From Dissulfurispira thermophila (lineage in GTDB: Bacteria; Nitrospirota; Thermodesulfovibrionia; Thermodesulfovibrionales; Dissulfurispiraceae), in the NCBI RefSeq assembly GCF_014701235.1, contig NZ_AP022873.1:1984001-2048000 (forward strand): DNA of 64,000 bases. Reading direction: 5' to 3'. This document shows, one piece after another, positions 56,242 to 62,062 of this stretch. The translations under genes were made by a program, and so were the position numbers. The notes below the pieces were generated by a model. It was not told the origin of the DNA, did no database searches, and saw only the letters and a list, made by a program, of their open reading frames with translations. Each line of letters starts with the position of its first letter. Within the stretch, counting starts at the first letter, position 1.

Positions 56242-56946
56242 ATGAACTTGACATTAGATATTAAAACTTTCTGCAAATCCTCCGGCGCAGACCTTGTGGG
56301 AATCGCCGACCTTGAACCGTTCAAACAAGGCTGGACGGTTCTGCCGCAGAATCTTTTAGAGCCGTATACGCGTGCAATCTCAATTGCAATGCATGTTAAT
56401 AATGATATAATCAGTGCCATCTCTGATGTCCCCACGCCAGAATATGCACAGCATTACAGGAGTGTGAATGCCTCTCTGGATAAGATCACTTCTCAGTTGG
56501 TTCAATGGATTATTGACAAAGGATTTAATGCAAAGGCTATTCAGGCCTCACATATCGTTGATGAAAACAACCTCCTCGGAAACATCTCCCATAAGGCTGT
56601 GGCAAGAATGGCAGGCATCGGATGGCAAGGGAAAAGCCTGCTCATCATAAGCCCTGAATACGGGCCAAGGATAAGGCTTGCAACTGTTATAACCAATATG
56701 CCCCTTGAAGCAGATCAGCCATTAAAGAATAGGTGTGGCAGATGCATGGAATGTGCTAAAGCCTGTCCTGCATCGGCAATAAAGAATGTATCCACAGAAA
56801 GCCATTACGAAAGCAGGGATGAGGCAATCCACTTAGATAAGTGCCATGGCAAATTGTGTGAATTCAAGGCAAGGCCGGGAGTTGATGCACTCATCTGCGG
56901 TGTTTGCATAAAGGTTTGTCCATTTGGTAAAAAATCAAGACTGTAA
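56242..56946 (+). CDS. Epoxyqueuosine reductase-like Fe-S protein
   Basis: A 234-residue protein with a QueG-like N-terminal part (GADLVGIADLEPFK, YTRAISIAMHV, AGIGWQGKSLLIISPEYGPRIRLATVITNMPLE) and two [4Fe-4S] motifs (CGRCMECAKACPASAI and CGVCIKVCPFG). True QueG is about 350 residues with HEAT repeats and needs cobalamin for queuosine synthesis; this is the short form, often of unknown role but corrinoid-linked. It lies 30 nt before the upstream ATG of hgcA, another corrinoid protein, and may be cotranscribed with it. Confidence 0.85.
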   Translation: MNLTLDIKTFCKSSGADLVGIADLEPFKQGWTVLPQNLLEPYTRAISIAMHVNNDIISAISDVPTPEYAQHYRSVNASLDKITSQLVQWIIDKGFNAKAIQASHIVDENNLLGNISHKAVARMAGIGWQGKSLLIISPEYGPRIRLATVITNMPLEADQPLKNRCGRCMECAKACPASAIKNVSTESHYESRDEAIHLDKCHGKLCEFKARPGVDALICGVCIKVCPFGKKSRL

Positions 56947-56976
56947 TAAAATGGCCATAATATTTTAAAATTAAAT

Positions 56977-57111
56977 ATGGCTAATATACTTAATATCCCT
57001 ATTTCTTGCTGACCGTCAGGCGCGAAAAAGCCTGCTGTACGCAGGACAACATCGGAATGGACAATAGACGACTACATTGGAGCGATCCGGTCGCGCATCA
57101 GTAATTTTCGT
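56977..57111 (+). other. Upstream in-frame segment of hgcA with an internal UGA (candidate Sec codon and SECIS hairpin)
   Basis: ATG at 56977 opens MANILNIPISC, then TGA (57010-57012), then the frame runs on as PSGAKKPAVRRTTSEWTIDD and YIGAIRSRISNFR into the Met at 57112. The part after the UGA looks like the conserved HgcA N-terminus, yet holds no ATG, GTG or TTG. CCTGC (57031-57035) and GCAGG (57041-57045) form a hairpin with loop TGTAC, 18 nt after the UGA, with G at loop position 2. A competing stem CAGGC/GCCTG exists at 57017-57034. No clear ribosome site precedes 56977. Confidence 0.5.
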
Positions 57112-58029
57112 ATGCAATATTCCGTCGAACCCGGACTTTACGCCATCGGACAACCTGACGCAGAATCTGATGTATTTGTAACCGCAAATTATAAACTAAG
57201 CTTTGATATTCTCAGAAAATCCCTTAAAGGGTTTAACGCTTGGATACTGGTGCTCGATACTAAAAGCATCAATGTCTGGTGTGCTGCCGGAAAAGGAACA
57301 TTCGGCACAGATGAGCTTGTGAGACGCATTAATGAAGTCCAATTGCATAAGGTTGTTCATCACAGAAAAATAATATTACCTCAACTGGGGGCCGTGGGCA
57401 TAAATGCAAAGGCAGTTCAGAAACAAACCGACTTCAAGGTTTATTTTGGGCCTGTTTATGCAAAAGATATCCCTGAATATGTAAATGCAGGTTATAAAAA
57501 AAACGATAAAATGCGACTTGTAAAATTTACAATGCTCGACAGGCTTATTCTTACTCCGATGGAGATTAATCCTGCTATGAAAAGATTCCCAATTTTTGCC
57601 CTAATTGTTCTGCTGATCTTTGGTCTCCAGCCGTCAGGCATTTTATTCAAAGATGCACTATCAGGAGGCATACCGTTTTTATTGCTTGGTTTGATGAGCA
57701 TACTCAGTGGTGCATTTATAACTCCGGTGCTGCTCCCCTTTATTCCATTTCGCTCATTTGCTGTTAAGGGCTGGATAACAGGAATAATATCCACATACAT
57801 CATGATGAAGACAACAAATCTGGACATTCTACCTGCTGTATCGTCCTACATTTTCTTTCCAGTTGCAAGCTCTTATATTGCACTTCAGTTCACGGGCTCC
57901 ACTACTTTTACTAACATGTCAGGCGTCAGGAGAGAGTTAAAAGTGGGGTTGCCAATATATTTAGTATTTACAGTTCTTTCGGTTATGCTACTATTAGTCT
58001 ATAAACTTTTTCAGTGGAAGGTTCTATGA
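57112..58029 (+). CDS. hgcA: HgcA, corrinoid-dependent mercury methyltransferase (standard-code part)
   Basis: The protein has the HgcA hallmark NVWCAAGKGTFGTDEL, whose Cys (residue 57 counting from this Met) ligates cobalt of the corrinoid, preceded by VEPGLYAIGQP and TANYKLSFDILRKSLKGFNAWILVLDTK. Four to five membrane helices follow (IFALIVLLIFGLQPSGILF, LLLGLMSILSGAFITPVLL, YIFFPVASSYIALQF, YLVFTVLSVMLLLVYKLF). HgcA transfers a methyl group to Hg(II) with HgcB. The Met at 57112 truncates the conserved N-terminus; the real protein probably begins at 56977 across a UGA (350 residues). The stop overlaps hgcB. Confidence 0.95.
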   Translation: MQYSVEPGLYAIGQPDAESDVFVTANYKLSFDILRKSLKGFNAWILVLDTKSINVWCAAGKGTFGTDELVRRINEVQLHKVVHHRKIILPQLGAVGINAKAVQKQTDFKVYFGPVYAKDIPEYVNAGYKKNDKMRLVKFTMLDRLILTPMEINPAMKRFPIFALIVLLIFGLQPSGILFKDALSGGIPFLLLGLMSILSGAFITPVLLPFIPFRSFAVKGWITGIISTYIMMKTTNLDILPAVSSYIFFPVASSYIALQFTGSTTFTNMSGVRRELKVGLPIYLVFTVLSVMLLLVYKLFQWKVL

Positions 58030-58331
58030 AATACCTGACAAATGTAGCGAGTTTACAGTTATCTCCTGAAAAATGTACAGGTTGCGGAAGGTGCATTGAT
58101 GTTTGCCCTCACGGTGTATTTGTTATTAATAATAAAAAAGTCTCGATTGCTGATAAAGACATTTGTATGGAGTGCGGGGCATGTGCCCTGAACTGCGAAT
58201 TTGGTGCAATTAGCGTGAATTCAGGAGTGGGCTGTGCAGCGGCAATAATTAACAGCATGATAACAGGTGGTCCGCCATCATGCGACTGTGGAGGATCTTC
58301 ATCTCAATCAGCATCCAGCAATTGTTGCTAA
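58026..58331 (+). CDS. hgcB: HgcB, ferredoxin partner of HgcA
   Basis: From ATG 58026, overlapping the hgcA stop as ATGA, the 101-residue protein has two ferredoxin motifs (CTGCGRCIDVCPHG, residues 17-30, and CMECGACALNC, 47-57), an HgcB-type GVGCAAAI cysteine (70), a CDCGG pair and the C-terminal vicinal cysteines NCC that define HgcB and may carry mercury. It reduces the HgcA corrinoid to Co(I). The GTG at 58014 is a less likely start. Confidence 0.95.
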   Translation: MKYLTNVASLQLSPEKCTGCGRCIDVCPHGVFVINNKKVSIADKDICMECGACALNCEFGAISVNSGVGCAAAIINSMITGGPPSCDCGGSSSQSASSNCC

Positions 58332-60770: not shown

Positions 60771-61199
60771 ATGTATAAAAAGATCCTCTCTGCTATAAAT
60801 GAACATATAAATTCAGAAGTTGCAGGTAGATATGCATTAAATCTTGCGAGGATTTGCAGTGCGAAACTCTATCTTTGCTTTATTGCTAAAAGAAACTTAG
60901 AGATTTCTGTTCTCAAAAAGGCTGAAGATGCATTAAGGAGACTTTTTTTAGAGGCTGAAAGACTTGGCGTGGATGTAGAAAGTATTATTGAAACAGGGGA
61001 TCCTTTTCAGAGAATTACAGAAATAGTTAAAAATGAAGATGTAGACATCTTATTTGCAGCAACGAGAAGAGAGGATATAAAAAAAAGATTCTACTCAGGA
61101 ACACTGTCAAGGAAGTTGATGTTAAAACTACCAGGTCAGGGGTCAGGTCTTGCTTTTTGCTACCTCTCCCTTCCTCTTAACTATTCTGCTTACCCTTGA
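60771..61199 (+). pseudogene. Universal stress protein with 3' end replaced by a transposon
   Basis: The first 120 residues have the UspA pattern (KKILSAINEHINSEVAGRYALNLA, AEDVDILFAATRRED, GTLSRKLMLKLP), but the last strand is missing: after KLP the frame enters the inverted-repeat end of the RAYT element (from 61139) and runs on for 20 foreign residues to a chance stop. The normal terminus would be PCPVLVVK-like. The protein may still fold, so function is uncertain. Confidence 0.8.
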
Positions 61200-62062
61200 G
61201 TAGTGTATCCCTATGAACTCTGCCACCTCAGATTGGCTATATCCATGCTCCATTACCGCCTCGTATATCCTCCTGTTCCTCTTTACCCTGTCCTTTAATA
61301 CATCTTGCCCAAACAATTCCTTAAGTGATGACCTTGCTATGTGCCTCTGCTTTCGGGGAATCTCCTTTAATCCTTTCTTGTCCTTAATTAATCCCATAAC
61401 CTCATCTATAAACTCATCTCTACCCAAAACTACCTGACCTTTTACATCTTTCCAGATCTTTTCCCCTCCAATACCTGCCATTACAAATTCAACATACCCT
61501 TTTATTGCCCTCTTCCTCTGTGGCCCAAATTGACCAAGCACCCAATCCACTGTCAGACAGGGATGGGCTTTACTCAATCCTGCTGTTGCCATGAAACTAC
61601 TCCATCTCCAATGCCTCGGATTCCTTACAATGCCTGCCCTCACCGGATTTAACACTACATACCTGCATACCTCAAGAAGATGTCTCTCTTTATCTATCAC
61701 TATTGCCTTGTATCTCCCCTGAAATAGATGCCCAACCCTCTGGTGTCTTTTATTGTATGCCTGTGTGTAAACTCCATTTAATTGCCTCATGCCTTTTGAA
61801 AGATTACCTTCAGGGGTCTCTATTACCAGATGATAATGGTTGCTCATTAAGCAGTAGGCGTGGCAGAGCCAGTTGTATTGCTCTGTTACCCTTTGCAGGA
61901 CATCAAGAAAGATATTTCTGTCTTCATCATCCTGAAAGATGTCCTTTCTTTCGTTCCCCCTTGAGGTAATGTGATAGACAGCACCTGCAAACTCTATCCT
62001 TAACGGTCTTGCCATTACAACATCTTAACACCTCAGAATAGCAAAAGGCAAGACCTGACCCC
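61139..62062. mobile_element. RAYT-type element bounded by 22-bp inverted repeats
   Basis: The ends GGGGTCAGGTCTTGC... at 61139-61160 and the complement at 62041-62062 match at 21 of 22 positions and enclose one transposase gene. The flanks also share GGTCA, so the repeat may be slightly longer. Insertion has clipped the 3' ends of genes on both sides. No clear target-site duplication is seen, as expected for Y1 transposases. Confidence 0.85.
61143..62015 (-). CDS. REP-associated tyrosine transposase (Y1, HUH type)
   Basis: A 290-residue single-strand transposase: MARPLRIEFAGAVYHITSRGNERKDIF, the HUH motif in MSNHYHLVIETPEGNL, the catalytic Tyr region VYTQAYNKRHQRVGHLFQGRYKAI, and a C-terminal HTH (GYSQSEVAEFIGIHYSRVSRIVKR). 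All domains are intact, so it may be active. RAYTs act on REP-like palindromes; the flanking inverted repeats are candidate substrates. Confidence 0.95.
   Translation of the reverse strand: MARPLRIEFAGAVYHITSRGNERKDIFQDDEDRNIFLDVLQRVTEQYNWLCHAYCLMSNHYHLVIETPEGNLSKGMRQLNGVYTQAYNKRHQRVGHLFQGRYKAIVIDKERHLLEVCRYVVLNPVRAGIVRNPRHWRWSSFMATAGLSKAHPCLTVDWVLGQFGPQRKRAIKGYVEFVMAGIGGEKIWKDVKGQVVLGRDEFIDEVMGLIKDKKGLKEIPRKQRHIARSSLKELFGQDVLKDRVKRNRRIYEAVMEHGYSQSEVAEFIGIHYSRVSRIVKRKGEVAKSKT

What the first reader, a model, noticed from the sequence alone, without database searches (positions are those of the whole stretch)
56977..57111. HgcA N-terminus continues upstream through an in-frame UGA: candidate selenocysteine or recoding
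Seen: the reading frame of hgcA continues upstream of its first Met (57112) for 33 sense codons (57013-57111) with sequence that fits the conserved HgcA N-terminus (EWTIDDYIGAIRSRISNFRM before VEPGLYA). That stretch has no ATG, GTG or TTG. It is bounded by TGA at 57010, itself in frame with an ATG 11 codons earlier (MANILNIPISC-UGA-PSG). A CCTGC-TGTAC-GCAGG hairpin begins 18 nt after the UGA with a G at loop position 2, within the general rules for bacterial SECIS elements. Inference: a Cys-Sec pair may replace the Cys-rich start seen in some HgcA proteins. Weak points are the lack of a clear ribosome site and a competing stem.
Basis: partly seen in the sequence, partly recalled or inferred. 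Interest (0 to 1): 0.85.

Follow-up and report, generated by a model that had tools for sequence, protein, structure and literature searches.

The report
Selenocysteine in mercury-methylation protein HgcA
The mercury-methylating protein HgcA of this bacterium begins upstream of an in-frame UGA that is almost certainly read as selenocysteine next to a cysteine, a real feature shared by six related genomes and belonging to a selenoprotein class already in the literature.

Summary
ATG 56977 opens a 350-codon hgcA frame with Cys11 (TGC), then UGA at codon 12 (57010-57012). Seven genomes of this family have UGA in the same Cys-UGA-Pro motif (six close relatives and one distant, 53% identical). Many other HgcAs have Cys-Cys there. 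The genome, a single 2.37-Mb contig, has selA, selB, tRNA-Sec and a selD that itself carries an in-frame UGA. The hairpin (57031-57045) is identical at all 15 bases in six genomes. Its five codons are the longest run of fully identical degenerate codons in the gene (next longest 2). The distant genome has a different, stronger hairpin in the allowed place. A structure model shows that residues after the UGA but before Met57112 belong to the folded domain, so a start at Met57112 would break it. The missing ribosome site is explained by a likely leaderless start: a -10-like box 5 nt before the ATG, a pattern seen in 11 of 49 genes here. HgcA with a 'CU' selenocysteine motif is already catalogued (PMC13188914, citing Haft & Gwadz 2023). 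This is therefore a true but known kind. Its role (mercury capture by a flexible Cys-Sec tail) is inferred.

The parts
56977..58029 (+). hgcA, full-length selenoprotein frame: 350 codons, ATG 56977, Sec at codon 12, stop TGA 58027-58029
   Evidence: (NF040863 396.6 bits, cut-off 275)
56966..56971 (+). -10-like box TAAAAT ending 5 nt before the ATG; likely leaderless transcript start
   Evidence: 11 of 49 genes in the window carry such a box 5-7 nt before the start; also at 5-6 nt before hgcA in G024, G089, G064 and before the second ATG in G113
57007..57012 (+). Cys11 codon TGC followed by Sec12 codon TGA (C-U pair)
   Evidence: same C-U-P in seven genomes
57031..57045 (+). SECIS-like hairpin CCUGC-UGUAC-GCAGG, G at loop position 2, loop 23 nt after UGA
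   Evidence: 15/15 bases identical in six genomes, five consecutive identical degenerate codons
57013..57111 (+). codons 13-45 of HgcA; from about residue 21 part of the folded corrinoid domain (strand 22-24, helix 30-41, helix 43-46)
58026..58331 (+). hgcB, overlapping the hgcA stop (ATGA); its GVGC cysteine is Cys, not Sec
   Evidence: (NF040864 121.3 bits, cut-off 99)

Best explanation
hgcA starts at ATG 56977, probably on a leaderless mRNA. The UGA at codon 12 is decoded as selenocysteine by SelB and tRNA-Sec, directed by the hairpin at 57031-57045. The product is a 350-residue HgcA with a Cys11-Sec12 pair on a flexible N-terminal tail ahead of the corrinoid domain. The decoding step is strongly supported by comparative evidence. 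The function is inferred: the Cys-Sec pair most likely binds Hg(II) and hands it to the corrinoid/HgcB site, as has been proposed for the C-terminal Cys pair of HgcB (about 0.5).
For: UGA in the same C-U-P motif in seven genomes. Six form one clade (support 99/96) and G113 is separate. CC occurs in the N-terminal tail of 48 of 97 distinct HgcAs. selA, selB, tRNA-Sec with UCA anticodon, and selD with an in-frame TGA at its Sec motif AAGUAAK are present. The hairpin codons are the longest run of invariant synonymous sites (5; next 2; 36 of 195 eligible codons invariant overall). G113 has a different 8-bp hairpin, -12.5 kcal/mol, G at loop position 2, 19 nt after UGA. The sister clade without the Cys pair has no comparable hairpin (best -2.6). 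Residues from 21 on are folded at high confidence and residues 1-16 are disordered. The -10-like box near the ATG recurs in most of the relatives. Literature lists HgcA as a CU selenoprotein.
Against: No direct protein or RNA evidence. The isolated hairpin (-6.6 kcal/mol) is just short of the -7.5 threshold quoted in PMC13188914, although the 60-nt region folds to -13.7. In one of six genomes (G012) the minimum-energy fold prefers another stem. G024 has a non-conserved in-frame ATG within the stretch. 35 of 97 distinct HgcAs, including the sister clade, have no N-terminal Cys pair, so the Cys-Sec pair is not essential to HgcA chemistry in general.
Confidence: 0.92

Rival explanations
1. HgcA starts at Met 57112 and the upstream frame is not translated; the UGA is an ordinary stop of a short unrelated frame.
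For: 57112 is the first ATG/GTG/TTG after the UGA; the 305-aa product still passes the HgcA model (375.4 bits).
Against: It loses the first 25 profile positions, removing a strand and a helix of the folded domain. Protein sequence upstream of it is conserved in all seven genomes. No ribosome site or -10 box before it.
Confidence: 0.03
2. Translation starts at a non-standard codon (ATT, ATA, ATC) between the UGA and Met57112.
For: ATA, ATT and ATC codons exist in the stretch; G024 has an ATG there.
Against: Does not explain the conserved C-UGA-P motif, the invariant hairpin codons or the open frame and ATG upstream of the UGA in seven genomes. No candidate start lies before the strand at residues 22-24; the first ATA is codon 30.
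Confidence: 0.02
3. The 11-codon frame is a regulatory leader peptide that ends at the UGA, and HgcA is made by re-initiation.
For: The frame is short and ends right before hgcA; stop and start lie close together.
Against: Length (11 to about 25 codons) and sequence before the Cys vary; only Cys-UGA-Pro is kept. UGA is never replaced by UAA or UAG in the seven genomes. Many homologues carry Cys-Cys in a continuous frame.
Confidence: 0.02
4. The UGA is a sequencing error or the gene is decaying.
For: None found.
Against: Seven assemblies share it; the downstream frame is intact and constrained.
Confidence: 0.01

Closest known systems
HgcA selenoprotein, 'CU' motif, NF040863 (Haft & Gwadz 2023, J Bacteriol 205:e00259-22; listed in Table 1 of PMC13188914)
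   Same: HgcA family over the curated cut-off; Sec directly after a Cys (CU).
   Different: Nothing essential. The original paper was not held, so whether this exact gene is in its list could not be checked. The SECIS constraint, leaderless start and second lineage (G113) were worked out here.
Cys-Cys HgcA of other Nitrospirota and other phyla
   Same: Vicinal pair on an N-terminal tail ahead of the corrinoid domain.
   Different: Second residue is Cys; no recoding needed.
HgcB selenoprotein, 'GVGU' motif, NF040864 (PMC13188914 Table 1)
   Same: Partner protein, also a selenoprotein in some organisms.
   Different: Here and in every relative checked, HgcB has Cys (GVGC) at that place.
C-terminal Cys pair of HgcB (Cys94/Cys95 in D. 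desulfuricans ND132; PMC7305189)
   Same: Vicinal pair on a disordered tail; proposed there to transfer Hg(II) or methylmercury.
   Different: On HgcB, C-terminal, sulfur only.

Membership tests
HgcA (mercury methylation corrinoid protein, NF040863) | Score over curated cut-off | tested here: met
   396.6 bits vs 275
HgcA (mercury methylation corrinoid protein, NF040863) | Cap-helix motif NVWCAAGK with the conserved Cys | tested here: met
   NVWCAAGK at residues 99-106; these columns invariant in 64 sequences
HgcA (mercury methylation corrinoid protein, NF040863) | C-terminal domain of five membrane helices | tested here: met
   Five long helices between residues 186 and 346 in the model
HgcA (mercury methylation corrinoid protein, NF040863) | Adjacent hgcB | tested here: met
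   NF040864 121.3 bits vs 99, overlapping ATGA
HgcA (mercury methylation corrinoid protein, NF040863) | Mercury methylation activity | not testable with these tools
   Needs a culture assay
Bacterial selenoprotein gene | In-frame UGA conserved in homologues, with Cys in others | tested here: met
   UGA in seven genomes; Cys-Cys in 48 of 97 distinct HgcAs
Bacterial selenoprotein gene | SECIS geometry: loop 3-9 nt, stem 4-16 bp, G in loop position 1 or 2, 16-37 nt from UGA | tested here: met
   Loop 5, stem 5, G at 2, 23 nt; 20-23 nt in relatives; G113 stem 8, 19 nt
Bacterial selenoprotein gene | SECIS energy at most -7.5 kcal/mol | tested here: inconclusive
   Hairpin alone -6.6; 60-nt region -13.7; G113 hairpin -12.5
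Bacterial selenoprotein gene | selA, selB, selC, selD in the genome | tested here: met
Bacterial selenoprotein gene | Selenium found in the protein | not testable with these tools
   Needs mass spectrometry or 75Se labelling

The most novel reading that the evidence does not exclude
In this lineage selenium supply gates methylmercury production. The UGA at codon 12 stops HgcA synthesis when selenium is short, and the Cys-Sec pair on the flexible tail is a dedicated high-affinity Hg(II) or methylmercury ligand that changes the rate or selectivity of methylation.
Probability: 0.25. Interest if true: 0.7.

Novelty: new member of a known kind. Interest (0 to 1): 0.42.

Why it matters
HgcA makes methylmercury, and selenium binds mercury very tightly. 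A selenocysteine in HgcA would tie methylmercury production to selenium supply and gives a testable role for the little-studied N-terminal Cys pair. It also means that standard gene callers cut this HgcA at Met57112, which removes part of the folded domain from clones or models.

Tried and rejected
Hairpin energy as sole proof: rejected, because rule-fitting hairpins of similar energy occur after 1.4% of TGA triplets in the window and at 3 of 70 CC sites of Cys-type HgcAs. Downstream non-standard start and leader-peptide readings: rejected, see rivals. Sec in HgcB: not found in any relative checked. An attempt to survey another phylum failed for want of a genome handle. The primary paper (Haft & Gwadz 2023) and Haft & Tolstoy 2025 are not held. 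Zhang & Gladyshev 2008 does not mention CO dehydrogenase, acetyl-CoA synthase or corrinoid in its main text. Other in-frame UGA junctions in the window were only listed, not followed up.

Full report
Observation. ATG 56977 opens a frame with TGC at 57007, TGA at 57010-57012 and then 33 sense codons without ATG, GTG or TTG up to Met57112. The hairpin CCTGC-TGTAC-GCAGG is at 57031-57045.

Identity. Read with the UGA as a residue, the 350-aa protein scores 396.6 bits against NF040863, HgcA (cut-off 275), from residue 21. The form starting at Met57112 begins only at profile position 26. hgcB follows and overlaps the hgcA stop as ATGA.

Relatives. Eighty HgcA loci from named genomes and searches of 120 genomes of the order, 31 of the family and 396 of the phylum gave seven genomes with a TGA inside HgcA: the window's own genome plus G012, G024, G064, G089, G126 and G113. 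All seven read Cys-UGA-Pro. In 97 distinct HgcAs the N-terminal tail holds CC in 48, CU in 7, CxC in 7 and none of these in 35. The six close Sec forms are one clade (99/96), sister to a clade that lacks the pair. G113 lies apart on a long branch, so the tree needs two changes. Whether G113 gained Sec on its own is not settled.

Machinery. The own genome has selA (629.9 bits), selB (378.4 bits), a tRNA-Sec with UCA anticodon (65.4 bits over a 47-bit threshold; ARAGORN) and selD with an in-frame TGA in the context AAGUAAK. The selD case is an internal example that this genome decodes UGA as Sec. selA is also present in G012, G024, G064, G089 and G113; G126 was not among the genomes tested.

SECIS. 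In the six close genomes the 15-nt hairpin is identical while its flanks vary. Among 195 codon columns with an invariant amino acid, 36 are identical in all six. The five hairpin codons (Pro-Ala-Val-Arg-Arg) form the longest run, against two for the next longest. If columns were independent, five in a row would have a probability near 0.0002 at a given place. The selection is therefore on the nucleotides. In G113 the encoded residues differ, yet an 8-bp hairpin of -12.5 kcal/mol with G at loop position 2 stands 19 nt after the UGA. Geometry fits the published rule for bacterial SECIS elements (PMC13188914). The isolated hairpin energy in the window, -6.6, is slightly short of the -7.5 given there, while the 60-nt region folds to -13.7. 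By energy alone the hairpin would not be convincing.

Start. In this window 11 of 49 genes have a -10-like box 5 to 7 nt before the start codon, a clear peak over other spacings, and none of those 11 has a ribosome-site match. This is the signature of leaderless transcripts. hgcA has TAAAAT 5 nt before ATG 56977; G024 and G089 have the same at 5 nt, and G064 has TATGAT at 6 nt. In G113 TATACT stands 6 nt before its second ATG. G012 and G126 do not fit. This supports ATG 56977 as the start but is not proof.

Structure. An AlphaFold2 model from 64 HgcA sequences (mean pLDDT 90.5) has residues 1-16 disordered. Strand 22-24, helix 30-41 and helix 43-46 are modelled, mostly with high confidence. 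Codons after the UGA and before Met57112 are thus part of the folded corrinoid domain. The Cys11-Sec12 pair sits in the flexible tail.

Mechanism. Shown by comparison: the UGA and hairpin are conserved and constrained. Inferred: SelB delivers Sec-tRNA at codon 12. More speculative: the Cys-Sec pair captures Hg(II) and passes it to the active site, parallel to the Cys pair on the disordered HgcB tail (PMC7305189). Since many HgcAs lack the pair, it is an accessory rather than a core part of the chemistry. A redox role (selenylsulfide) or a role in selenium-dependent control is not excluded.

Known or new. PMC13188914 Table 1 lists HgcA, NF040863, motif CU, citing Haft & Gwadz 2023. [quoted passage not shown] That paper is not held here. 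The finding is correct and of a known kind. The synonymous constraint on the SECIS, the leaderless start, the separate G113 lineage and the folded N-terminal residues are details added here; whether the original paper also reports any of them could not be checked.

Noticed in passing
window, 49 gene starts (e.g. 17770, 37567, 52908, 60771 on +; 11765, 34536, 52846, 56155, 63143 on -): About a fifth of genes have a -10-like box ending 5-7 nt before the start codon and no ribosome-site match, suggesting that leaderless transcripts are common in this bacterium.
   Followed up: partly
L094 1531 (G000:C1 near 665512): selD is itself a selenoprotein gene: in-frame TGA in the motif AAGUAAK.
   Followed up: partly
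L140 / L159 (G113): A distant HgcA on a long branch with its own Cys-UGA-Pro and a much stronger SECIS-like hairpin than the window's.
   Followed up: partly
L110-L113, L014, L016, L017: The clade sister to the Sec-HgcAs has no N-terminal Cys pair at all and starts at a plain ATG.
   Followed up: partly
window 56242-56946 (+): Upstream neighbour resembles the iron-sulfur part of QueG/reductive dehalogenases but scores far below both cut-offs; the end of a similar gene is also next to hgcA in G024.
   Followed up: no
window 61143-62015 (-): Looks like a REP-associated/IS200-type transposase by its N-terminal sequence.
   Followed up: no
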